Translations under genes and position numbers: made by a program
Notes under the pieces: model-generated
The model's input: the letters and a program-made list of their open reading frames with translations, nothing else
What the model was told of the DNA's origin: nothing
Database searches by the model: none
From: Bacillota bacterium
Lineage (GTDB): Bacteria > Sysuimicrobiota > Sysuimicrobiia > Sysuimicrobiales > Segetimicrobiaceae
Length of the DNA: 37,606 nt
Direction: 5' to 3'
Assembly (NCBI GenBank): GCA_021324295.1
Contig: JAJPJJ010000116.1
Location: forward strand, 1 to 37,606
In this document: positions 222-12,584 of the stretch, piece after piece
Layout of the letters: every line of letters begins with the position of its first letter
How positions within the stretch are numbered: the first letter of the stretch is position 1

Positions 222-938
222 ATGTCGGGCAGCTCAGCGGCAACCGGGATGGAGCTCTTCCTGGACTCGGCCAACATCGAGGAGATCAAGCGCTGGATGG
301 ACGAGGGGCTCGTGGACGGCGTCACCACAAACCCGTCGATCATGTATGCCGACGGGGTGTATGACGTCGAGCGAGGGGCCGCGCGGATCGCGGAGGTGGT
401 CCATCCCAGGCCGGTTGCCGTGGAGGTGACGGCGGACGAGGGTGGCGAGATGCTGCGCCAGGCAAGGACCCTGGCCCGCCTTGCCGAGAACATCGTGGTC
501 AAGATCCCGGTGATCAACCAGTTTGGGGAGCCGTGCCTGCGCGTCGCGGGGGCGTTGGAGCAGGAGGGCATCCGGGTGAACGTCACGGCGTGTCTCGCGT
601 TCGGCCAGGCGGCGATGGCCGCGAAGGCCGGCGCGACGTACGTGAGCATCTTCAGCGGACGCATCTCGGACGAGGGACACGATGCCCAGGCGGTCGTGCG
701 GGCGACCGCCGAGTGGCTGGCTCGCTGGGGGTACAAGAGCCGGATCATCGTGGGCAGCATCCGTCGGGCGTACGACATCCAGGAGGCGGCTTTGGCTGGC
801 GCGCACATCATCACGGTGCCTCCGCGGCTCCTCGGGAAGCTGCTGGATCACCGGTACACGCGCGACACGGTCCGCGTGTTCGTCGAGGATGGCCGGAAGG
901 CGCTGGCCAAGATGGAGGAGGCGCGGGTGCGGACGTGA
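222..938 (+). CDS. TalC/FSA-type transaldolase family protein
   Basis: This 238-residue protein belongs to the small class I transaldolase / fructose-6-phosphate aldolase family (TalC, MipB), which moves or cleaves three-carbon ketol units through a lysine Schiff base. The sequence shows the family start (MELFLDSANIEEIKRW), the VTTNPSI loop, and NIVVKIPV with Lys94 at the expected Schiff-base position. YVSIFSGRISDEG follows as in other members. I chose ATG 222 because GAGG at 210-213 lies 8 bases upstream. GTG 213 and ATG 249 are alternatives, and ATG 249 gives the most family-like N-terminus. The stop overlaps the next start (GTGA, 935-938). Being first in a sugar locus, it may make or remodel the sedoheptulose-type precursor; that role is inferred. 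Transaldolase and aldolase activity cannot be told apart here. Confidence 0.9.
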   Translation: MSGSSAATGMELFLDSANIEEIKRWMDEGLVDGVTTNPSIMYADGVYDVERGAARIAEVVHPRPVAVEVTADEGGEMLRQARTLARLAENIVVKIPVINQFGEPCLRVAGALEQEGIRVNVTACLAFGQAAMAAKAGATYVSIFSGRISDEGHDAQAVVRATAEWLARWGYKSRIIVGSIRRAYDIQEAALAGAHIITVPPRLLGKLLDHRYTRDTVRVFVEDGRKALAKMEEARVRT

Positions 939-1927
939 CCGCGCTGCGCGCCGAGCGCGCGGAGCTCCCGCCCGAGCAGGTCCGGGACCTGCTGCGGCAA
1001 ATGATCCGCATCCGCTGCGCGGAGGAGACGCTCGCCGACCTCTATGCCGAACAGGAGATGCGGACACCGACGCACTTCTCCATCGGCCAGGAGGCCGTCG
1101 CCGTGGGCGTCTGCGCCGCCCTTCGCCGCGATGACGTGATCTACAGCGGCCACCGCTGCCACGCGCACTTTCTCGCCAAGGGCGGCAGCCTGCCCGGTCT
1201 CGTGAGCGAACTCTACGGCAGGGAGGGTGGGGTGGCTCGGGGGCGGGGTGGGTCTGTGCACCTGGCGCAGCCCGACGTCGGGATGATCGCCTCCTCCGCC
1301 ATCCTCGGGCAGACGATCGCGGTAGCCGTGGGGTCCGCGTGGGCGTTCGCCATGGACCGGGTGCCGCGCGTGGCGGTCGCTTTCTTCGGCGACGGCGCGG
1401 TGGAAGAAGGGGTGTTTCACGAGAGCCTGAACTTCGCCGCGGTCCGCAAGGTTCCGGTGCTCCTGGTCTGCGAGAACAACCTGTACTCGACGCACAGCCC
1501 GCTCAGCGTGCGGCAACCGGCCGGCATCGCCATCCACGAGCGCGCGCGCGCGTACGGGATTCCGGCCCGCCACGTGGACGGCAACGACGTGCTGGCGGTC
1601 TACCGGGCGGCCGAGCAAGCGGTCGCGTATTGCCGCGGCGGCGCGGGCCCGTGCTTCCTGGAGTGCGCGACGTACCGCTGGCGGGAGCACGTCGGTCCCC
1701 TCTGGGATTACGACCGCGGGTATCGCTCGAAGGCGGAGGTGGACGCCTGGGTGGCCCGCTGCCCGATCAAGCGACTCGCGGAGCACTGCCTCGCGCGCGC
1801 CATCTGCACCGCGGACGAGCTGGAATCATGGCGTCGTGAGTGTCAGCAGGAGGTCGCCGAGGCCGTCGCGGCGGCCAAGCGCAGCCCCTTCCCCTCGGGT
1901 GCCGACATCCTCCAGGGCGTGTACTGA
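935..1927 (+). CDS. Thiamine-diphosphate E1 alpha subunit (PDH E1-alpha family)
   Basis: This 330-residue protein is the alpha subunit of a two-component 2-oxoacid dehydrogenase E1 (E1_dh family), which binds thiamine diphosphate with the beta subunit encoded next. The cofactor motif is complete: GDG at residues 152-154, then AVEEGVFHESLNFAAV and the closing ENN at 180-182. The usual N-terminal features are present, including HFSIGQEAVAVG and RGRGGSVHLA. The start is GTG 935, which overlaps the TalC stop by 4 bases and implies translational coupling. No E2 acyltransferase or E3 is present in the window. Its position in a sugar cluster suggests a two-carbon transfer onto a sugar rather than central metabolism, as proposed for E1-like pairs in branched-sugar antibiotic pathways. 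That role is inference. Confidence 0.9.
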   Translation: MTALRAERAELPPEQVRDLLRQMIRIRCAEETLADLYAEQEMRTPTHFSIGQEAVAVGVCAALRRDDVIYSGHRCHAHFLAKGGSLPGLVSELYGREGGVARGRGGSVHLAQPDVGMIASSAILGQTIAVAVGSAWAFAMDRVPRVAVAFFGDGAVEEGVFHESLNFAAVRKVPVLLVCENNLYSTHSPLSVRQPAGIAIHERARAYGIPARHVDGNDVLAVYRAAEQAVAYCRGGAGPCFLECATYRWREHVGPLWDYDRGYRSKAEVDAWVARCPIKRLAEHCLARAICTADELESWRRECQQEVAEAVAAAKRSPFPSGADILQGVY

Positions 1928-2278
1928 GGCCCCCCGCTTCATGCCCGCACGGTGCCGGTGCCCTCTCCCGCGCGCGGATGCGTTAAAAGGCCCGGGCCCC
2001 CATCGGACCGACACAGCTCGCGTCAGCTCCACGGCCGGTTGCCGTCGTCGCGAGACCCGTGTTCCAGGCCCGGGCCCCCATCGGACCGACACAGCTCGCG
2101 TCAGCTCCACGGCCGGTTGCCGTCGTCGCGAGACCCGTGTTCCAGGCCCGGACCCCCATCGGGCCGGTGCGAGACCACCTCACCTCCGCTTCCGCTTGCC
2201 GACGTCGCGGTACCTGGGTCCCCGGGACCTGCGCGCGAGGCGCTCGAACCCCAGATCCGGCTCTCGGCGGAGGCTGCC
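1928..2278. other. Repeat-filled gap between E1 alpha and E1 beta genes
   Basis: No gene is recognised in these 351 bases. Nearly half is the 78-bp tandem array annotated separately. Reading frames stay open across it on both strands because the repeat length is a multiple of three, but the translations are Pro/Arg/Ser-rich and look like nothing known. In the E1 beta frame the sequence is open upstream to ATG 1952, so an N-terminally extended E1 beta is formally possible. The good ribosome site at 2269-2273 argues against it. Confidence 0.7.
1989..2222. repeat. 78-bp tandem repeat, two identical copies plus one diverged copy
   Basis: Copies start at 1989, 2067 and 2145. The first two units appear identical. 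The third keeps the opening block (ggcccgg, then cccccatcgg) and the tgccg-cgtcgcg block but differs elsewhere. The unit is 26 codons long. A diverged, gapped copy of the same element lies at about 18528-18602, so this is a dispersed as well as a tandem repeat. There are no obvious long internal inverted repeats, but each unit carries a tcgcga core palindrome. Confidence 0.9.
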
Positions 2279-3313
2279 GTGCAGCGACTGACGTACTGGC
2301 AGGCTATCAGCCAGGGCCTGGTGCAGAGCATGGAGCGGGATCCCGGTATCTTCGTGGCCGGTATCGGGGTGGACGACTTCAAGGGCGTCTTCGGCACCAC
2401 GCGGGCGGCCTTCGAGCGGTTCGGCGCCGCCCGGGTGATCGATATTCCCAACTGCGAGAACGCGTTCGCCGGGATCGCCATCGGCGCGGCGGCGATGGGC
2501 AAGCGCCCCGTCGTCGTGCACCCTCGGAACGACTTCATGTTTCTGGCGCTGGATCAAATCATCAACCTGGCGGCAAAGTGGAAGTACATGTATCAGGCCG
2601 CGCGCGGCGTGCCGGTGGTCTTCCGCGGCATCGTCGGGCGCGGCTGGGGGCAGGGCGCCACGCACTCGCAGAGCCTGCACGCGCTCTTCGCGCACTTCCC
2701 CGGGCTGTACGTGGCCGCGCCGGCCTGTCCCGCGGACGCGAAGGGCCTCTTGTGTGCTGCCCTCCGCGGGGATGTGCCCGTCGTGCTCCTGGAGCATCGC
2801 GCGCTCTACGACCTCGAGGGGGACGTTCCGGAGGAGCCCACGCCCGTGCCCTTCGGGCAGGCCCGCGTGATCCGGGAGGGAACGGACGTCACGGTCGTGG
2901 GGGCGTCGCTTATGGCCTACGAGGCGACCCGGGCGGCGGACCTCCTGGCCGAGCATGGGGTCCGCGCCGAGGTCATCGACCCGCGAAGCCTGCGGCCGCT
3001 CGACGAGGGGACGATCCTGCGCTCGTTGAAGAAGACCGGGCGCCTCGTCGTGGCGGACACGAGCTGGGCGCGCTACGGGTTCGCCGGCGAGATCGCAGCG
3101 ATCGCGGCGGAGGGCGGCCACGCGTGGCTGCGGGCGCCCGTGCGGAGGGTGACCCCGCCCGACTGCCCCGCGCCGGTCTCCCGGCCGCTCGAGGAGGCGT
3201 TTCATCCCACGTCGATGACGATCGCCCGCGCGTGCTTGGAGGTGCTCGGGGCGGAGGCGCCGTGGGGTGACGCTGTGACGGACGTGCAGGCGCGGTTTTC
3301 CGGGCCGTACTGA
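2279..3313 (+). CDS. Thiamine-diphosphate E1 beta subunit (transketolase-like)
   Basis: This 344-residue protein is the beta partner of the preceding E1 alpha, with a transketolase pyrimidine-binding domain (about residues 3-175) and a C-terminal transketolase domain (about 195-320). Glu60 in NCENAFAGIAIG matches the glutamate that activates the thiamine ring. ALDQIINLAAKWKYMY and GQGATHSQSLHALFAHFPGL are clear family blocks. The start GTG 2279 has a strong ribosome site (GGAGG 2269-2273, 5-base spacing). The phosphate-loop region reads GVDDFKGVFGTT rather than the more usual GEDVG..GGVFR form, so it is not a typical pyruvate dehydrogenase. The substrate is unknown. It lies upstream of the GT2 gene with 6 bases between. 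Confidence 0.88.
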   Translation: MQRLTYWQAISQGLVQSMERDPGIFVAGIGVDDFKGVFGTTRAAFERFGAARVIDIPNCENAFAGIAIGAAAMGKRPVVVHPRNDFMFLALDQIINLAAKWKYMYQAARGVPVVFRGIVGRGWGQGATHSQSLHALFAHFPGLYVAAPACPADAKGLLCAALRGDVPVVLLEHRALYDLEGDVPEEPTPVPFGQARVIREGTDVTVVGASLMAYEATRAADLLAEHGVRAEVIDPRSLRPLDEGTILRSLKKTGRLVVADTSWARYGFAGEIAAIAAEGGHAWLRAPVRRVTPPDCPAPVSRPLEEAFHPTSMTIARACLEVLGAEAPWGDAVTDVQARFSGPY

Positions 3314-3319
3314 GGAGGT

Positions 3320-4105
3320 ATGGCGCGAGACGGGCGCTCGCTCTCCATCTTCGTGCCGGCGCACAACGAGGCGCGGAACCTCGAGGGTGCGATTCAGGAC
3401 GTCGTGGCGGCCGCCGAAGCGCGGGGAGGAGACTACGAGATCCTGCTCGTCGACGACGGGAGCACCGACGGGACGCCCGACCTCGCCGATCGCCTGGCGC
3501 GGGCCTACCCGCGGATCCGGGTCATCCACAAGCCCGCGAAGGAGGGCCTCGCCTCCGGCTACCGCACCGCGTTGAGCCTCGCCACCAAGGACTACATCGC
3601 GTTCATCCCCGGGGATCGCGAGATCAACGCCGCGTCCGTCCGCGCGATCTTCGAGGCGGTCGGGTCGGCGGACGTCGTCGTCCCGTACCACGCCAACAGC
3701 CAGGCCCGCCCGTGGCACCGGCGGGTGCTGACGAGGATCTCGACGGCGCTGCTCAACGCCCTGTTCCAGCGGCACGTGCGATACTACCAGGGGCCGGCGG
3801 TGTATCCGACCCGGCTGGCCCGCGCGCTTCCGGCGCACAGCCGGGGGTTCTTCTTCCTGGCGGAGATGCTCGTGCACGCCCTCGACCGGGGGTGCAGCTA
3901 CGTCGAGGTCGGATTGGTCCACCAGGAGCGGACCTCGGGGACCTCGAAGGCGGTCACCGTGTCCAACATCCTCCTCGCCCTCCACGCGATCTTCGGGGCG
4001 TGGTGGACGCTGCGCGTGAGGCGGCGGCGGCCGGCGGCCCGCCCCGGCGGGGCCGCCGGCCTGTCCGAGGACTGGGCGCGCTCCCAGGGGAACGATGGAG
4101 CCTAG
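3320..4105 (+). CDS. Family 2 glycosyltransferase (DPM1-like)
   Basis: This 261-residue GT-A glycosyltransferase resembles dolichyl- or polyprenyl-phosphate mannose synthase-type GT2 enzymes, which transfer a nucleotide-activated sugar to a lipid or glycan acceptor at the inner membrane. It has the N-terminal strand SIFVPAHNEARN, VDDGSTDG at residues 44-51, and PGDREI at 97-102 in the place of the metal-binding DXD. HQERTSGTSK (201-210) matches the conserved C-terminal loop. The hydrophobic stretch at about 214-232 may contact the membrane. The basic, low-complexity tail after 233 has no family match. ATG 3320 directly follows GGAGGT with almost no spacer; the upstream in-frame stop leaves no other sensible start. 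The acceptor is unknown. Confidence 0.9.
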   Translation: MARDGRSLSIFVPAHNEARNLEGAIQDVVAAAEARGGDYEILLVDDGSTDGTPDLADRLARAYPRIRVIHKPAKEGLASGYRTALSLATKDYIAFIPGDREINAASVRAIFEAVGSADVVVPYHANSQARPWHRRVLTRISTALLNALFQRHVRYYQGPAVYPTRLARALPAHSRGFFFLAEMLVHALDRGCSYVEVGLVHQERTSGTSKAVTVSNILLALHAIFGAWWTLRVRRRRPAARPGGAAGLSEDWARSQGNDGA

Positions 4106-5300: not shown

Positions 5301-6308
5301 GTGAGGGCCATCGTGACGGGGGGAGCCGGATTTCTCGGCAGCCACATGGTGGACCTGCTCGCGGAGCGGGGTTTCGAGGTCGTTGTGATCGACAACCTCA
5401 GCACCGGGCGCCTGGACAACCTCGCGCAGCACCGGGGCAACCCGCGGGTGACGATCCACGAGGCCGACATGGCCGAGCTCGAGGCGTCCTGCCCGTGGTT
5501 CGCGGGCGTCGACTACGTGTTCCACTTCGGGGGCCTCGGCGACATCGTCCCGTCGGTGGAACGTCCGCTGGACTACATGCGGGCCAACGTCACGGGCACG
5601 CTCGCGGTGCTGGAGGCGGCGCGCCACGCGGGGGTCCGCAAGCTCGTCTATGCCGCCTCGTCGTCCTGCTACGGCGCCGAGCCGCCGCTGCCGACCCCCG
5701 AGGACGCGCCGGCGGCGCCGGAGTACCCTTACGCGCTCAGCAAACATCTCGGCGAATGCTCGGTGCTGCACTGGGGAAAGGTCTACGGGCTGCCCGTGGT
5801 CTCGTTGCGGATCTTCAACGCGTACGGGCCCCGCGCCCGCACGCGCGGGGCGTACGGGGCCGTGTTCGGGGTGTTCCTCGCGCAAAAGCTCAGGGGCCTC
5901 CCGTTCACCGTGATCGGTGACGGGACCCAGCGGCGGGATTTTGTCTACGCGACCGACGTGGTCCGGGCGTTCCTGCTCGCGGCGGAGTCCCCCTGCCGGC
6001 TGGAGGTCTTCAACGTTGGCGCAGGGAACCCGCAGAGCATAAACCGCCTGGTGGAGTTGCTGGGCGGGGACGTGGTGTACGTCCCCAAACGTCCCGGGGA
6101 GCCCGACTGCACGTGGGCGGACATCCGCAGGATCCGCGAGCGGCTGGGGTGGGAACCGCAGGTATCGTTCGAGGAGGGGGTCGGCCGGATGCTCGGCGCC
6201 ATCGAGGCCTGGGCCCATGCGCCGGTGTGGACCCCGCAGGCCATCCAGGCGGCCACCGACGCGTGGTTCCGGTACCTGGGAGCACGTCCCGGAACCCGTG
6301 CCAGATGA
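5301..6308 (+). CDS. NAD-dependent epimerase/dehydratase (extended SDR) 2
   Basis: This 335-residue extended SDR resembles UDP-glucose 4-epimerase-type enzymes. It has GGAGFLG at residues 7-13, the ASSSCYG patch near 119-125, and Tyr144-x3-Lys148 in YALSK. SLRIFNAYGPRARTRGAYGAV and DGTQRRDFVYATDV are strong family blocks for UDP-sugar epimerases and decarboxylases. I chose GTG 5301 because VRAIVTGGAGF starts the fold at the right place. The frame is open upstream to GTG 5190, but that extension looks unrelated to the family. There is no strong ribosome site at 5301. The nucleotide sugar is unknown. Confidence 0.9.
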   Translation: MRAIVTGGAGFLGSHMVDLLAERGFEVVVIDNLSTGRLDNLAQHRGNPRVTIHEADMAELEASCPWFAGVDYVFHFGGLGDIVPSVERPLDYMRANVTGTLAVLEAARHAGVRKLVYAASSSCYGAEPPLPTPEDAPAAPEYPYALSKHLGECSVLHWGKVYGLPVVSLRIFNAYGPRARTRGAYGAVFGVFLAQKLRGLPFTVIGDGTQRRDFVYATDVVRAFLLAAESPCRLEVFNVGAGNPQSINRLVELLGGDVVYVPKRPGEPDCTWADIRRIRERLGWEPQVSFEEGVGRMLGAIEAWAHAPVWTPQAIQAATDAWFRYLGARPGTRAR

Positions 6309-6396: not shown

Positions 6397-7932
6397 GTGA
6401 GCTCGGATTTCCGGCAGAAGATCAAGAGCCGGGAGGAGGTGGCGCAGATCATCGGGAAGCGGCCCCGCCGCCGCGCCGTCGTGATGTGCCACGGCGCCTT
6501 CGACATCGTCCACCCGGGACACCTGCGGCACCTCGCCTACGCGAAGGAGAAGGCGGACATCCTGATCGCCAGCATCACGGCGGACGCCCAGATCCTGAAG
6601 GCCAACTACCGGCCGTACGTGCCCGAGGAGCTGCGGGCGCTAAACCTGGCGGCGTTGGAGTTCGTGAATTTCGTGATCATCGACCCCAACCCGACGCCGA
6701 TCGAGAACATCCTGTTCCTCCAGCCCGACTTCTTTGCGAAGGGGTACGAGTACTTTGCCAACGGCCTGCCGGTGCGGACGCAGGAGGAGATCGCGGCCCT
6801 CCGGACGTACGGCGGCGAGATGCTGTTCACGCCCGGCGACGTCGTCTACTCCTCCTCGGCGCTCATCGAGTCGCATCCCCCCAGGCTGGCAGTCGACAAG
6901 CTCCTGATCCTGATGGAGTCCGAGGGGATCGGCTTTTCCGATCTCCGCCGGACGCTGGAGCAGTTCCGGGGGCTGCGCGCGCACGTGGTGGGGGACGCGA
7001 TCGTGGACAGCTACGTGTACTGCTCGGTCCTGGGGGCCACCGCCAAGTCCCCCACGCTCAGCGTGCGGTTCGAGCGGCGCGAGATGTTCGCGGGAGGGGC
7101 GGCGGCGGTGGCGAAGCACATGCGCGCGACCGGCGCCGAGGTGACGCTGTCCACGGTGACCGGGGACGACGAGCCCAAGGAGTTCCTCCTCCGCGAGATG
7201 GCGGACTCGGGGATTCGCGCGCTGCCGGTCGTCGACCGGATGCGCCCGACGACCTGCAAGGAGCGGTTCCTCGCCGGCGGGCAGAAGCTGCTGCAGGTGG
7301 ACCGGGTCGACAACCGGGCGGTGTCGGAGCGCGCGCTGGAGGCGATCGGCGACGCGCTCCGAGCGGACCGGGCGGACACGGTGGTCTTCAGCGACTTCCG
7401 GCACGGGATCTTCAACCGCCAGACCGTCAAGCTCCTCCGGGCGCACATCCCCGCCGGGGCGCTCACGGTGGCGGACAGCCAGGTCAGCAGCCGGTGGGGC
7501 AACATCCTGGACTTCACCGAGTTCGACCTGCTGACGCCAAACGAGCGTGAGGCCCGGTTCGCGCTCGGGGACCAGGACTCCGTCGTGCGGCCGCTCGCGC
7601 TGAAGCTGTTTCAGGCGGCCCGGTGCCGGTGGCTCATCCTGAAGCTGGGCGAGCGGGGCCTGCTGGGCTACCGCACTCCCGGTCCCAACCCTCGCGAGTT
7701 CTTCATGGTGGACAGCCTGGCCGACCACGTGGCCGATCCGATCGGGGCGGGGGACGCGCTTGTGGCCTATACCTCGATGGCCCAGCGCGTCACCGGGAAC
7801 CTCGTGATCGCCGCGATCCTCGGGTCGGCCGCCGCCGCGGTGTGCTGCGAGCGGTACGGGAATCACGCCGTCACCCCGACCGAGGTGCTCCAGAAGATCG
7901 ACGCGCTGGAGAAGATCGCGCACTACCGATGA
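6397..7932 (+). CDS. Cytidylyltransferase-PfkB kinase fusion, HldE-like with reversed domain order
   Basis: This 511-residue bifunctional enzyme probably activates a sugar phosphate. The N-terminal part (about 25-160) is a nucleotidyltransferase of the cytidylyltransferase class: CHGAFDIVHPGH carries the HxGH motif at 39-42. The C-terminal part (about 180-500) is a PfkB-type sugar kinase with VVGDAIVDSY near 197, FAGGAAAVAKH near 231, and DPIGAGDA with GAGD at 450-453, whose Asp is the catalytic base. E. coli HldE, which makes ADP-heptose, has kinase first and adenylyltransferase second; here the order is reversed. GTG 6397 has GGGGAGAGG just upstream. The stop overlaps the next gene (ATGA). 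Together with the GmhA-like gene this suggests heptose activation; the nucleotide used is not known. Confidence 0.9.
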   Translation: MSSDFRQKIKSREEVAQIIGKRPRRRAVVMCHGAFDIVHPGHLRHLAYAKEKADILIASITADAQILKANYRPYVPEELRALNLAALEFVNFVIIDPNPTPIENILFLQPDFFAKGYEYFANGLPVRTQEEIAALRTYGGEMLFTPGDVVYSSSALIESHPPRLAVDKLLILMESEGIGFSDLRRTLEQFRGLRAHVVGDAIVDSYVYCSVLGATAKSPTLSVRFERREMFAGGAAAVAKHMRATGAEVTLSTVTGDDEPKEFLLREMADSGIRALPVVDRMRPTTCKERFLAGGQKLLQVDRVDNRAVSERALEAIGDALRADRADTVVFSDFRHGIFNRQTVKLLRAHIPAGALTVADSQVSSRWGNILDFTEFDLLTPNEREARFALGDQDSVVRPLALKLFQAARCRWLILKLGERGLLGYRTPGPNPREFFMVDSLADHVADPIGAGDALVAYTSMAQRVTGNLVIAAILGSAAAAVCCERYGNHAVTPTEVLQKIDALEKIAHYR

Positions 7933-8837
7933 GGTACCTGGTCGTGGGCTATGGGAACCTCGGCGCGAAGCGAAAGCAGGTGCTCGGGGAGCGGTGCGCG
8001 GGCACGGTCGACCCGTGTGCCGCCGGCGCGGACTACGCGTCCCTGGGCGAGTGCCCGGCCGAGCGGTACGACGCGGCCATCCTCGCGGTTCCCAATCCGG
8101 TGAAGCTCGAGCTGCTCGGCCTGCTCCTGGACCGGGGCAAGCACGTGCTGGTCGAGAAGCCGCTCGTGTTTCCCGACGACGCGACCGCCGACCGGCTGCG
8201 ACGGCAGGCGGTCTCCCGCGGCGTCATCTGGTACACGTCGTACAACTTCCGGTTCGAGCCCCACGTGGTCAGGCTGCGGCAGCTCGTCGCGGACGGGGCG
8301 GTGGGGCCCGTCTACCACGCGCGGCTCTTCTACGGCTACGGCACCGCCGGCAGCGTGGCCGGGACGTGGCGGGACGATGAGCTCGGCGTCCTCCAGGACC
8401 TCGGGAGCCACCTCATCGACCTGACCGGTTTCGTCTTCGGACGGTTCGGCGCGGAGTTCGTGGTCTGGGCGCGCGCTGCCTACGAGCTTGCGGGCATCGA
8501 CCACTGCATCCTCGCCACCGCCGACCGCCGGATCGTCATCGAGTGCAGCTACCTGTCCTGGAAGAACCGCTGGTCCATCGAGGTGGTCGGCGCGCGGGGC
8601 GCGCTCCGCATGGACGGGCTGACCAAGTGGGGGCGCAGCGAGCTCGTGGTCCAGCGCCGCCGGTTGCCGAGCGGAGCCCCGGACGAGCAGCGCGAGGTGG
8701 CGACGATGCCCGACCCGACGTGGTCGGCCGATCTCGCGTGCTTCGAGGAGATGGCGGCGGCCGGCCGGACGTCGTACGACAACGACGTGTGGATCTCCCG
8801 GACGATCCGGCGCGCCGCCGCGTGCACGCTGCGCTGA
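7929..8837 (+). CDS. Gfo/Idh/MocA-family oxidoreductase
   Basis: This 302-residue NAD(P)-dependent oxidoreductase of the Gfo/Idh/MocA family typically acts on sugars or nucleotide sugars. The N-terminal Rossmann start is MRYLVVGYGNLGAKR, and the hallmark EKP is at residues 76-78 (VLVEKPL). QDLGSHLIDL supplies the active-site Asp/His region. Start ATG 7929 overlaps the preceding stop by 4 bases, and the next gene begins 1 base after this stop, so it sits tightly inside the operon. It is somewhat shorter than the usual 330-370 residues. A role in oxidising or reducing a ring position of the cluster's sugar is inferred. Confidence 0.88.
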   Translation: MRYLVVGYGNLGAKRKQVLGERCAGTVDPCAAGADYASLGECPAERYDAAILAVPNPVKLELLGLLLDRGKHVLVEKPLVFPDDATADRLRRQAVSRGVIWYTSYNFRFEPHVVRLRQLVADGAVGPVYHARLFYGYGTAGSVAGTWRDDELGVLQDLGSHLIDLTGFVFGRFGAEFVVWARAAYELAGIDHCILATADRRIVIECSYLSWKNRWSIEVVGARGALRMDGLTKWGRSELVVQRRRLPSGAPDEQREVATMPDPTWSADLACFEEMAAAGRTSYDNDVWISRTIRRAAACTLR

Positions 8838-8838
8838 G

Positions 8839-10131
8839 ATGGTCGAGCCGACCGGGTTCCTGGGGCTGTCGCATCTCGGGCTTGTGAGCAGCATCGGCTG
8901 GGCCTCCCGGGGCGATCCGGTCGTCGCCGTGGACCCTGACCCGGAGGCGGTGGCCGTCCTGGCCCGCTCCCGGCTGCCGGTGGACGAGCCGGGGCTCGAC
9001 GAGCTGCTCTCGGCCGCGCGCCCCCGGATGACGTTCACCACAGACGTCGCGGCCCTCGCCGCGTGCCCGCTGGTGATGCTCACGCGCGACGTTCCGACAG
9101 CGGAAGACCACCGCAGCGATCTTCTGGCGGTGGAACGCCTGGTGACGGCGGCGATGCCCCATCTCCGCCCGGGGGCGACCCTGGTGATCACGAGTCAGGT
9201 GCCTCCCGGGTTCACGCGCGCGGTGGCCGCCCGAGCCCGTCGCGAGCGAAGCGGCGCCGGACTCCGCGTGTACTACTGGGCCGAGACCCTCGTCGTGGGG
9301 CGGGCGGTGGACCGCTACCTGCGCCCCGAGCGGATCATCCTCGGCTGTGAGGAGCCGGGGGCGGCGCTTCCTCCGACCCTCGAGCGCGGGCTCGGCCTCT
9401 TCCGCTGCCCGGTCCTCAGGATGCGCTACGAGAGCGCGGAACTCGCGAAGGCTGCGATCAACCTCTACCTGTCCTGCGCGGTGACGTACACCAACACCCT
9501 GGCGGACCTCTGCGAGCGCATCGGCGCCGACTGGTCCGAGGTCGCCCCGGCGCTGCGGCTCGATCCCCGGATCGGGCCCGCCGCCTACCTGCGGCCGAGC
9601 CTGGGGCTCTCGGGCGGCAACCTGGAGCGGGACGTCATCGCACTTCACACGCTCGCCGCCGGGTGCGGGGTGGACGGGTCCTTCATCGATGCGATCATCG
9701 AGTGCAACGCCCGGCGCACCCGCTGGGTGATGGACAAGCTCGAGGCGCTGGTCTTCGCGGAGGTGCCCCGGCCCACGGTCGCCGTCTGGGGTCTCGCGTA
9801 CAAGAAGGGGACGCGGTCCTTGAAGAACGCGCCCGCCCGCCGGGTGCTCTCCGCCCTGGAGGGAAGGGCCGCGGTACGCGCCTACGATCCGCTTGCGGGC
9901 GCCGCGGACGTGGGCGCGGGCGTGCTCGTCGTCTCGCGTCGGGACGAGGCGCCGCTGGGCGCAGACTGCCTCCTGATCCTGACCGACTGGGACGAGTTCG
10001 CCGCGGCCGACCCGGCGGCGCTGCGGCGCATCATGCGCCGGCCGCTCGTGATCGACTGCGCCGGGGCGCTGGAGGGCCGGCGCGGGGAGCTGGACGGAGT
10101 CGAGTACGTCTCGATGGGCCGGGCCCCATGA
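8839..10131 (+). CDS. UDP-sugar dehydrogenase homologue lacking the catalytic cysteine
   Basis: This 430-residue protein has the whole architecture of UDP-glucose/GDP-mannose dehydrogenases: an N-terminal NAD domain, a central helical domain (ELAKAAINLYLSCAVTYTN, with the conserved Lys and Asn), and a C-terminal UDP-binding domain (VAVWGLAYKKGTRSLKNAPA). The active-site motif, normally GGxCFPKD, reads SGGNLERD at residues 258-265, so the nucleophilic Cys is Asn261. The Rossmann loop reads GLSHLG instead of GxGYVG. Without the thiol the usual four-electron oxidation to a uronic acid should not occur. The rest is intact, so a two-electron oxidation, an epimerisation or a different sugar is plausible. 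The stop overlaps the next start (ATGA). Confidence 0.85.
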   Translation: MVEPTGFLGLSHLGLVSSIGWASRGDPVVAVDPDPEAVAVLARSRLPVDEPGLDELLSAARPRMTFTTDVAALAACPLVMLTRDVPTAEDHRSDLLAVERLVTAAMPHLRPGATLVITSQVPPGFTRAVAARARRERSGAGLRVYYWAETLVVGRAVDRYLRPERIILGCEEPGAALPPTLERGLGLFRCPVLRMRYESAELAKAAINLYLSCAVTYTNTLADLCERIGADWSEVAPALRLDPRIGPAAYLRPSLGLSGGNLERDVIALHTLAAGCGVDGSFIDAIIECNARRTRWVMDKLEALVFAEVPRPTVAVWGLAYKKGTRSLKNAPARRVLSALEGRAAVRAYDPLAGAADVGAGVLVVSRRDEAPLGADCLLILTDWDEFAAADPAALRRIMRRPLVIDCAGALEGRRGELDGVEYVSMGRAP

Positions 10132-10738: not shown

Positions 10739-11650
10739 GTGCCAGACCGCAAGATCGTCATCCTCGGGCATACCGGGTTCATCGGGCGGGCCCTCCAGGT
10801 CCACTTCGAACGCGAGGGCCGCGAGGTCGTCGGCTTTTCCTCGCGTGCCGCCGATCTCCGTCGGCCTGACGGTCTCCGGCCCCTGGACGGCGTGATCGAT
10901 CGCCGGACGGTCGTGATCTTCGCCTCGGCGATCACCCGGGACAGGGGCGACACGCTCGGCACGCTTCTGGACAACGTGGCGATGGCGGGCCACCTGGCGG
11001 CGTTCCTGGAGTCGCATCCCCCGGCGCAGTGCGTCTGTCTCAGCTCGGACGCCGTGTACGCGGCGCAGGAGGACCCGATCACGGAGGACACACCCGTGTG
11101 CCCCGGAGGCACCTTCTACGCGATCGCCAAGTACACCGCAGAGTGCCTCCTGCGACGCTCGGCGGAGGCGGCGAGCATCCCGCTGCTCGTGCTGCGGCCG
11201 ACCGCGGTGTTTGGGCCGGGGGATACGCATCGTGCGTACGGGCCCAACGCCTTCCTCAGGGACGTGATCGACCGCCGCGAGGTGCGGCTCTTCGGCCAGG
11301 GCGAAGAGCGGCGCGATCACCTCTACATCGGTGACCTGGTGCGCCTGGTCGCCCGCCTGGTCCAGAGCGAGGTGGTGGGCACGGTGAACCTGGCCACCGG
11401 TGTCAGCCGCTCGTTTGCGGAGGTGGTCGAGTGTCTGCGCCGCGTCGTGCCGTTCGAGTTTCGGGTCTCCCACCTTCCCCGGCGGGTGCCGGTTACGCAC
11501 CGTCGCTTCGACATCGCACGCCTGGCGCGGCAGGTCCCGGGATTCGCGTTCACGAGCCCTGAAGACGCGCTGCGCGAGGCATTTGAGTGCCTGCGGGCGG
11601 CGACCGTGAGCGGCGATGCCGACGGGCGCGCCCCTGGGCCCACGGCGTGA
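10739..11650 (+). CDS. NAD-dependent epimerase/dehydratase (extended SDR) 3
   Basis: This 303-residue extended SDR has GHTGFIG at residues 10-16, a CLSSDAVY serine patch near 100-107, and Tyr127-x3-Lys131 (YAIAK). VLRPTAVFGPGDTH and ERRDHLYIGDL are sugar-epimerase blocks. It is shorter than epimerases 1 and 2 and not closely similar to them, so the locus encodes three distinct SDRs. GTG 10739 has GAGAGG at 10727-10732, 6 bases upstream. The last 15 or so residues are low complexity and lead into the 72-bp tandem array. The substrate is unknown. Confidence 0.88.
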   Translation: MPDRKIVILGHTGFIGRALQVHFEREGREVVGFSSRAADLRRPDGLRPLDGVIDRRTVVIFASAITRDRGDTLGTLLDNVAMAGHLAAFLESHPPAQCVCLSSDAVYAAQEDPITEDTPVCPGGTFYAIAKYTAECLLRRSAEAASIPLLVLRPTAVFGPGDTHRAYGPNAFLRDVIDRREVRLFGQGEERRDHLYIGDLVRLVARLVQSEVVGTVNLATGVSRSFAEVVECLRRVVPFEFRVSHLPRRVPVTHRRFDIARLARQVPGFAFTSPEDALREAFECLRAATVSGDADGRAPGPTA

Positions 11651-11663
11651 GGCGGGACGCGGC

Positions 11664-11915
11664 GCGCCGGATCGAGGAGGTCCGGGGTGCCGCCGCGACC
11701 GGGAGTACCGAGTCTGAGCAACGTGGCTCGCGGACGCGCCGGATCGAGGAGGTCCGGGGTGCCGCCGCGACCGGGAGTGCCGAGTCTGAGCAACGTGGCT
11801 CGCGGACGCGCCGGATCGGGGAGGTCCGGGGTCCCGCCGCGACCGGGAGTGCCGAGTCTGAGCAACGTGGCTCGCGGACGCGCCGGATCGAGGAGGTCCG
11901 GGGTCCCGCCGCGAC
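11664..11915. repeat. 72-bp tandem repeat, about 3.5 copies
   Basis: Units start at 11664, 11736, 11808 and 11880; the last is cut after about 36 bases. The copies differ by only a few substitutions. The unit is 24 codons, so several frames remain open through the array on both strands. Each unit contains a short dyad (ccgga and tccgg arms around tcgaggagg). The array fills the gap between epimerase 3 and the methyltransferase and ends about 15 bases before the methyltransferase ATG. It resembles the 78-bp array in placement and unit size. Sequence relatedness is limited to the short CGCGACC-type core and is uncertain. Confidence 0.9.
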
Positions 11916-11930
11916 TAGGAGACCTCGGGC

Positions 11931-12584
11931 ATGCGGGAGGTGAACCTGCTGGATTCGTATCCCCGCATCAAGCGGCCGCTCCGCGAGCGCGAGCAGGCCC
12001 GGCCGCGACAGCGCGAGGTCGCGCGGCGCTTCGGGCGCGAGTATTTCGACGGAGACCGGACGCAGGGGTACGGCGGCTACTACTACGACGGCCGGTGGCT
12101 CGCGGTCGCCAGACGGATGCAGGAGTTCTACGGCCTCATGCCGGGGCATCGCGTCCTCGACGTCGGGTGCGCCAAGGGATTCCTGCTCCACGATCTCCGG
12201 CAGGTGATCCCGGGCATCCGGGTGGCCGGCCTCGATATCTCCGCCTACGCGATCGGGCAGGCGATCGAGGACGTCAGGCCGTTCCTGGTCCTCGGATCCG
12301 CGGACCGGCTGCCGTTTGCGGACCGCTCCTTCGACCTCGTCGTCTCCATCAATACCGTGCACAACCTCGACCTCGACCGGTGCAAGCAGGCGATCAGGGA
12401 GATGGAGCGCGTGAGCCGGGCGTACAAGTACCTGCAGGTCGACTCCTTCCTGACCGAGGAGCAGCGCGAGAACTTCGAACGGTGGCAGCTCACGGCGCTC
12501 ACGTATTTCCCGCCGGACGGCTGGCGGCGGCTCTTCGCCGCGGCCGGCTACACGGGAGACTACTACTGGACGGTCACGGAGTGA
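11931..12584 (+). CDS. Class I SAM-dependent methyltransferase
   Basis: This 217-residue Rossmann-fold methyltransferase has motif I as VLDVGCAKG (residues 75-83), an acidic binding residue Asp102 in GLDIS, and GSADRLPFADRSFDLVVS as motifs II-III. The N-terminal segment (YFDGDRTQGYGGYYYDGRW) is of a type I associate with methyltransferases in LPS or capsule loci. It probably methylates a sugar or glycan end; the target is inferred from context. ATG 11931 follows the 72-bp array; AGGAGA at 11917-11922 gives a usable ribosome site. The stop overlaps the next gene (GTGA at 12581). Confidence 0.88.
   Translation: MREVNLLDSYPRIKRPLREREQARPRQREVARRFGREYFDGDRTQGYGGYYYDGRWLAVARRMQEFYGLMPGHRVLDVGCAKGFLLHDLRQVIPGIRVAGLDISAYAIGQAIEDVRPFLVLGSADRLPFADRSFDLVVSINTVHNLDLDRCKQAIREMERVSRAYKYLQVDSFLTEEQRENFERWQLTALTYFPPDGWRRLFAAAGYTGDYYWTVTE

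What the first reader, a model, noticed from the sequence alone, without database searches (positions are those of the whole stretch)
935..3313. E1 alpha/beta pair without E2/E3 inside a sugar locus
The two subunits have complete thiamine motifs (GDG...ENN; Glu60 in beta) but no lipoyl partner nearby. In avilamycin- and aldgamycin-type pathways E1-like pairs are thought to add two-carbon units to sugars. With TalC directly upstream, the trio could build a branched or longer-chain ketose, an unusual route for a surface glycan.
Basis: partly seen in the sequence, partly recalled or inferred. Interest (0 to 1): 0.6.

Follow-up and report, generated by a model that had tools for sequence, protein, structure and literature searches.

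The report
Sugar-branching enzyme pair in glycan locus
A gene pair that looks like part of pyruvate dehydrogenase belongs instead to a separate enzyme lineage that probably glues two-carbon side branches onto unusual cell-surface sugars; the closest studied relatives do this in Streptomyces antibiotics, and here the pair sits in a rare-sugar pathway of an uncultured bacterium.

Summary
TalC (249-938), E1-alpha (935-1927) and E1-beta (about 2279-3313) sit in a glycan operon. No E2 or lipoyl domain lies on this contig; the genome's three E2 genes sit beside other E1 pairs.

Independent alpha and beta trees place the window pair, with three same-family orthologues, as sister to Streptomyces pairs mostly in NDP-deoxysugar clusters, some paulomycin-like. 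These lie inside a strongly supported clade in which 0 of 63 loci carry an E2 gene (35 of 59 outside). His81, Arg83 and Arg174 of the beta chain mark the clade. Ordinary PDH/BCDH is therefore rejected, and the avilamycin/aldgamycin comparison is supported.

The 'trio' reading is only partly supported. TalC belongs with a GmhA-type isomerase and a HAD phosphatase, a set that occurs without E1 in sister genomes. The wider locus (TalC, isomerase, sugar kinase/nucleotidyltransferase, SDRs, Gfo/Idh, cysteine-less UDP-glucose-dehydrogenase homologue) resembles lincosamide octose genes and recurs in Acidobacteriota, Chlamydiota and Hyphomicrobiales, paired there with a different E1 sublineage.

Best model, inferred and unassayed: TalC builds a higher-carbon ketose phosphate, which is activated to an NDP-sugar and oxidised to a ketone, and E1 adds a pyruvate-derived acetyl branch. 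E1-type branching had been credited to Gram-positive antibiotics; YerE serves Gram-negative glycans.

The parts
249..938 (+). TalC/LmbR-type transaldolase (fructose-6-phosphate aldolase family)
   Evidence: PF00923 3.2e-46. Below the NCBIfam equivalog cut-off for fsa_talC. The genome has a separate main transaldolase on C107.
935..1927 (+). E1-alpha-like ThDP subunit of the sugar clade (GDG...ENN)
   Evidence: PF00676 4.8e-66; 295.7 bits against a 393.85 cut-off for PDH E1 alpha; E1-alpha tree
2279..3313 (+). E1-beta-like subunit: Glu60, His129 and clade signature H81-x-R83-x-D85, W123, Q125, R174
   Evidence: tree
3320..4105 (+). Family 2 glycosyltransferase
   Evidence: PF00535 1e-25; conserved in L047-L049
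4181..5188 (+). SDR epimerase/dehydratase 1, a frequent partner of sugar-clade E1 pairs
   Evidence: PF01370; 57-63% identical in Acidobacteriota, Chlamydiota and Hyphomicrobiales
5301..6308 (+). SDR epimerase 2
   Evidence: PF01370 1.1e-59; 60-69% identical across phyla
6397..7932 (+). HldE-like bifunctional enzyme in reversed order: nucleotidyltransferase domain first, PfkB sugar kinase second
   Evidence: rfaE domain II at residues 23-159 and domain I at 188-501; 52-59% identical across phyla
7929..8837 (+). Gfo/Idh/MocA oxidoreductase (LmbZ-like role)
   Evidence: PF22725/PF01408
8839..10131 (+). UDP-glucose/GDP-mannose dehydrogenase homologue with the catalytic Cys replaced by Asn (GGNLERD); predicted alcohol-to-ketone oxidase (LmbL-like role)
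   Evidence: PF03721/PF00984/PF03720; Cys-to-Asn in all module copies, Cys kept in other loci; also Cys-less in the lmb-like L228
10128..10727 (+). SIS-domain ketose-phosphate isomerase (GmhA/LmbN-like)
   Evidence: PF13580; weak match to gmhA, far below cut-off; 51-73% identical in module copies
10739..11650 (+). SDR 3 (RmlD/epimerase type)
   Evidence: PF01370 3.3e-31
11931..12584 (+). SAM-dependent methyltransferase of the module
   Evidence: PF08241 1.2e-15; 53-60% identical in L215 and L089

Best explanation
The E1 pair is a two-subunit ThDP carboligase of the branched-sugar lineage (alphaKADH2, like AviB1/AviB2, Plm8/Plm9 and KbDH), not a dehydrogenase component. Inferred mechanism: (1) TalC makes a higher-carbon ketose phosphate, most simply an octulose phosphate as LmbR does. 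(2) The SIS isomerase turns it into an aldose phosphate, the HldE-like enzyme phosphorylates C1 and adds a nucleotide, and a HAD phosphatase (next door in relatives, not in the window) removes the terminal phosphate. (3) SDR enzymes set the stereochemistry, and the Cys-less dehydrogenase homologue makes a ketone instead of a uronic acid. (4) E1-alpha/beta decarboxylates pyruvate on ThDP and adds the resulting two-carbon (acetyl) unit to the ketone, giving a tertiary alcohol with a two-carbon branch. (5) Gfo/Idh or SDR enzymes may reduce the branch, the methyltransferase modifies the sugar, and the glycosyltransferase passes it to a surface glycan. Shown here: lineage, missing E2, conserved linkage, lost cysteine. 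Inferred: donor, acceptor, chain length, order of steps.
For: Beta tree: window plus 3 orthologues are sister to 10 Streptomyces pairs (SH-aLRT 100), inside a 63-row clade (100) with no E2-linked row. The alpha tree agrees (59-row clade 100; window plus Streptomyces 100). E2 in 0/63 loci against 35/59 outside, p=4.8e-15; HldE, SIS or GHMP kinase genes in 30/63 against 0/59; beta His81, Arg83 and Arg174 at 100% in the clade against 0, 0 and 5% outside. Nine of the ten Streptomyces loci carry deoxysugar or antibiotic-type glycosyltransferase genes, and L195/L199 have paulomycin-type content. In paulomycin, Plm8/Plm9 attach a two-carbon chain derived from pyruvate (PMC4802897); KbDH is pyruvate-specific and takes ketone acceptors in vitro (PMC12247030). 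The octose-like module is conserved in order in Acidobacteriota, Chlamydiota and Hyphomicrobiales, paired there with another E1 sublineage. A profile of module TalC finds one strong match among 395 Streptomycetaceae genomes, in a cluster matching lmbK-L-M-N-Z-P-(O)-S-R (table in PMC4351081).
Against: No enzyme assay and no known product from this or any related candidate-phylum locus. No sequence of AviB1/B2, KbDH, Plm8/9, Qnc or Scl could be put in the tree; the link to paulomycin rests on gene content. One close relative (S. griseofuscus plasmid, L069) sits next to NRPS/ACP genes with no sugar genes within 20 kb. TalC and SIS of the window are only 31-35% identical to those of the lmb-like cluster. 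No 4,6-dehydratase is seen, so which enzyme makes the ketone is a guess. The GmhB-like phosphatase is missing from the window.
Confidence: 0.6

Rival explanations
1. Transketolase-like reading: the E1 pair takes a two-carbon glycolaldehyde unit from a ketose phosphate or hydroxypyruvate and, with TalC, lengthens an aldose phosphate to the ketose that the SIS isomerase uses.
For: E1-type two-component transketolases using ketose donors are known from naphthyridinomycin and quinocarcin biosynthesis (own knowledge), and SclQ2/SclQ3 are homologues of QncN/QncL (PMC6335953). Heptose-type activation genes sit beside 30 of 63 sugar-clade E1 pairs. E1 and TalC genes overlap here.
Against: The SIS-HAD-TalC set works without E1 in sister genomes. 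Nearest relatives sit in deoxyhexose pathways that need no long ketose. No lipoyl partner, which the Qnc/Nap enzymes need, is on the contig.
Confidence: 0.2
2. An ordinary 2-oxoacid dehydrogenase E1 that borrows E2/E3 encoded elsewhere in the genome.
For: All cofactor motifs are intact, and three E2 genes exist elsewhere in the genome.
Against: Those E2 genes have their own E1 pairs. The pair lies in an E2-free clade in both trees and scores below NCBIfam PDH cut-offs. Most of the sugar-clade copies aligned have a C-terminal beta extension, where PDH E1-beta chains dock E2 (docking from general knowledge).
Confidence: 0.04
3. A carboligase of the sugar clade with another donor or acceptor, for example adding the two-carbon unit to a non-sugar or making an acetoin-like product used in the glycan.
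For: The close Streptomyces relative L069 lies beside a condensation-domain protein, ACP and PPTase with no sugar genes within 20 kb.
Against: The other near relatives, and the window's own neighbours, are sugar genes.
Confidence: 0.12

Closest known systems
alphaKADH2 branched-sugar E1 pairs (AviB1/AviB2, Plm8/Plm9 = Pau11/Pau12, KbDH-alpha/beta, aldgamycin pair)
   Same: E1-alpha/beta architecture, no E2, sugar gene cluster, sister position to Streptomyces pairs from NDP-deoxysugar and paulomycin-like clusters (64-69% identity in beta).
   Different: Known cases decorate dTDP-deoxyhexoses of Gram-positive antibiotics. Here the pair sits in a higher-carbon-sugar module of a surface-glycan locus in a candidate phylum.
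Lincosamide octose pathway (LmbR, N, P, K, O, M, L, Z, S)
   Same: Transaldolase, SIS isomerase, HAD phosphatase (in relatives), SDR, Cys-less UGD homologue and Gfo/Idh.
   Different: HldE-like fusion replaces LmbP/LmbO, no DegT aminotransferase (LmbS), and an E1 pair is added. Identity to the lmb-like cluster L228 is only 30-39%.
YerE-type branching enzymes (yersiniose, erwiniose)
   Same: Same chemistry proposed: a ThDP enzyme adds a two-carbon unit to a keto-sugar of a surface glycan.
   Different: YerE is a single-chain decarboxylase-superfamily protein; this is an E1-alpha/beta pair of another superfamily.
Two-component transketolases QncN/QncL, NapB/NapD, SclQ2/SclQ3
   Same: E1-like split subunits acting outside PDH.
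   Different: Those pass a glycolyl unit to lipoyl and ACP carriers for NRPS; no such carriers lie here. Not placed in the trees.

Membership tests
alphaKADH2 branched-sugar carboligases | E1-alpha (PF00676) and E1-beta (PF02779/PF02780) pair with ThDP motifs | tested here: met
alphaKADH2 branched-sugar carboligases | No E2/lipoyl partner; sugar gene neighbourhood | tested here: met
alphaKADH2 branched-sugar carboligases | Groups with characterised members in a phylogeny | tested here: inconclusive
   Sister to pairs from paulomycin-like and other deoxysugar clusters, but no characterised sequence itself was available.
alphaKADH2 branched-sugar carboligases | Pyruvate donor, ketone acceptor | not testable with these tools
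   needs an enzyme assay
PDH/BCDH E1 | Encoded with, or phylogenetically nested among, E2-linked pairs | tested here: not met
PDH/BCDH E1 | Above curated NCBIfam cut-offs | tested here: not met
   295.7 against 393.85 for alpha; 301.4 against 321 for beta
Two-component transketolase (Qnc/Nap/Scl) | Lipoyl/acyltransferase and ACP partner genes | tested here: not met
   no biotin/lipoyl domain on the contig; none among the neighbouring genes scanned
Lincosamide octose pathway | Transaldolase plus SIS isomerase of the Lmb type | tested here: inconclusive
   Same gene partnership; the only strong TalC-profile match in 395 Streptomycetaceae lies in an lmb-ordered cluster, at 31-35% identity to the window proteins
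Lincosamide octose pathway | DegT aminotransferase LmbS and GHMP kinase LmbP | tested here: not met
   DegT absent from window and E1-bearing module copies; an HldE-like kinase is present in place of LmbP
Lincosamide octose pathway | Octulose 8-phosphate product | not testable with these tools
   needs an enzyme assay

The most novel reading that the evidence does not exclude
E1-type enzymes are a second, widespread class of sugar-branching enzyme for bacterial surface glycans, in well over a dozen phyla. In the window's module they add a two-carbon branch to a lincosamide-like octose at the ketone made by the Cys-less dehydrogenase, in place of transamination, giving a branched ten-carbon sugar not described before.
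Probability: 0.3. Interest if true: 0.78.

Novelty: new variant of a known kind. Interest (0 to 1): 0.6.

Why it matters
Published work credits E1-type sugar branching to Gram-positive antibiotics and YerE to Gram-negative glycans. These trees show a large E2-free E1 clade tied to surface-glycan genes in many phyla, with diagnostic beta residues (His81, Arg83, Arg174) that can correct a common 'pyruvate dehydrogenase' or 'transketolase' annotation. It also shows a lincosamide-like higher-sugar module outside antibiotic producers, which makes a set of unknown glycans predictable and testable.

Tried and rejected
Ordinary PDH/BCDH: rejected by trees, cut-offs and gene context. Qnc/Scl-type transketolase: at first favoured because of the S. 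griseofuscus neighbour, dropped as the main reading once the other close Streptomyces loci proved to be deoxysugar clusters. Plain GDP/ADP-heptose pathway: disfavoured because a dedicated transaldolase accompanies the isomerase although the genome has its own main transaldolase. Literature searches for E1 genes in O-antigen loci gave nothing relevant. Self-trained gene calling failed on several GC-rich loci, so contexts were re-read with another model and with direct protein searches. No Rfam match in the window. No structure prediction was run; it would not settle the donor or acceptor.
Full report
Observation. The window is the whole of contig C3 of a 4.02 Mb genome in 129 contigs, 96% complete, from a phylum for which 43 genomes are held. 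TalC (249-938), E1-alpha (935-1927) and E1-beta (start about 2279, end 3313) are intact, with the GDG...ENN motif, beta Glu60 and beta His129. They open an operon with a glycosyltransferase, two SDRs, an HldE-like kinase/nucleotidyltransferase fusion, a Gfo/Idh oxidoreductase, a UDP-glucose-dehydrogenase homologue, a SIS isomerase, a third SDR and a methyltransferase. The genome has seven E1-alpha genes and three E2 genes; the E2 genes sit beside other E1 pairs, and no biotin/lipoyl domain lies on this contig.

Lineage. The nearest solved structures are PDH and BCDH E1 chains, but both subunits fall short of the curated PDH cut-offs. E1-beta relatives were collected from same-phylum genomes, plasmids, 80 loci of named genomes and 395 Streptomycetaceae genomes. 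In the beta tree (122 rows) the window and its three same-family orthologues form a clade with ten Streptomyces pairs (SH-aLRT 100), inside a 63-row clade (100) that holds no E2-linked locus. The alpha tree gives the same picture. E2 genes are found in 0 of 63 loci inside against 35 of 59 outside (p=4.8e-15). Heptose-type activation genes (HldE, SIS or GHMP kinase) occur in 30 inside and none outside, and DegT in 32 against none. His81, Arg83 and Arg174 of beta are invariant inside and almost absent outside; by the alignment they correspond to Phe80, Thr82 and Glu173 of human E1-beta (mature numbering worked out by hand), the first two beside residues that line the PDH active site (general knowledge). 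Caveats: the loci were picked by similarity to a sugar-type query, many are MAG contigs of limited length, the support is SH-aLRT only, and the context searches used a fixed set of reference proteins.

What the close relatives do. Nine of the ten close Streptomyces loci carry deoxysugar genes or antibiotic-type glycosyltransferase genes (NDP-hexose 2,3-dehydratase, RmlA/B/C, EryCIII-type glycosyltransferase); L195 and L199 have paulomycin-type content with anthranilate synthase, a P450-like helper and (L195) isochorismatase. [quoted passage not shown] KbDH from the kibdelomycin pathway is limited to pyruvate and accepts cyclic ketones in vitro (PMC12247030). The exception is L069, next to NRPS/ACP genes.

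The sugar module. The same genes (SIS, HAD phosphatase, TalC, SDR1, SDR2, HldE-like, Gfo/Idh, UGD homologue, with SDR3 or methyltransferase) recur in closely matching order in Acidobacteriota (L079/L215), Chlamydiota (L213) and Hyphomicrobiales (L089/L216). The SDRs 1 and 2, HldE and SIS are 51-69% identical to the window's, TalC only 34-37%, and each locus carries an E1 pair, but from another sublineage of the clade. So two E1 sublineages were paired with one module, which argues that the step matters. In all module copies the catalytic cysteine of the UGD homologue is Asn (GGNLERD), so it probably makes a ketone and not an acid (inference). The SIS-HAD-TalC part occurs without E1 in sister genomes (L219, L221, L223/L224, L225), so TalC does not depend on E1. 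A profile of the module's TalC gave one strong match among 395 Streptomycetaceae genomes, in a cluster with the gene content and order of lmbK-L-M-N-Z-P-(O)-S-R (the O position has no Pfam match), whose UGD homologue also lacks the cysteine (table in PMC4351081). In lincomycin the transaldolase and isomerase make an octulose 8-phosphate and its isomer, and later enzymes convert GDP-octose (PMC12945683; PMC4351081). The lmb-like cluster has DegT and no E1; module copies with E1 have no DegT. This suggests, on few cases, that E1 uses the ketone that an aminotransferase uses in lincosamides.

Mechanism and confidence. Shown: lineage, absence of E2, conserved linkage, lost cysteine. Inferred: pyruvate as donor, an NDP-keto-sugar as acceptor, a carbon chain longer than six and perhaps eight, and the order of steps. 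I put 0.6 on the branching model, 0.2 on a transketolase-like role, 0.12 on another acceptor and 0.04 on an ordinary dehydrogenase.

Novelty. Earlier authors wrote that Gram-positive antibiotic producers use E1-like pairs and Gram-negative glycans use YerE for such branches (PMC4753412; PMC12247030). I found no paper describing E1 pairs in surface-glycan loci, though most subscription journals are not held. The finding is a new variant of a known kind.

Noticed in passing
window 1988-2166 and 11658-11915: Two unrelated intergenic tandem arrays in the same operon (78 bp x 2.3 between E1-alpha and E1-beta; 72 bp x 3.6 between SDR3 and the methyltransferase), 97-98% matching units, no Rfam match.
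   Followed up: partly
window 8839-10131: UDP-glucose-dehydrogenase homologue in which Asn replaces the catalytic cysteine, conserved in the module across four phyla.
   Followed up: yes
window 6397-7932: HldE-like fusion with the nucleotidyltransferase domain first and the PfkB kinase second, the reverse of E. coli HldE.
   Followed up: partly
L228 1883-9952: An lmb-ordered octose gene cluster in an unnamed Streptomycetaceae genome with a class II tRNA-synthetase-like neighbour; product unknown.
   Followed up: partly
L012 (own contig C96) 5826-7834: A second sugar-clade E1 pair in the same genome, in an exopolysaccharide-type cluster with DegT.
   Followed up: partly
L050, L071, L093, L106, L108, L115, L121: Another recurring group: GHMP kinase, E1 pair, DegT and a B12-type radical SAM protein, often with a nucleotidyltransferase, suggesting C-methylated, aminated branched sugars.
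   Followed up: partly
L069 18989-27161 (S. griseofuscus pSGRIFU1): A close relative of the pair (67% in beta) beside a condensation-domain protein, ACP and PPTase, with no sugar genes within 20 kb.
   Followed up: partly
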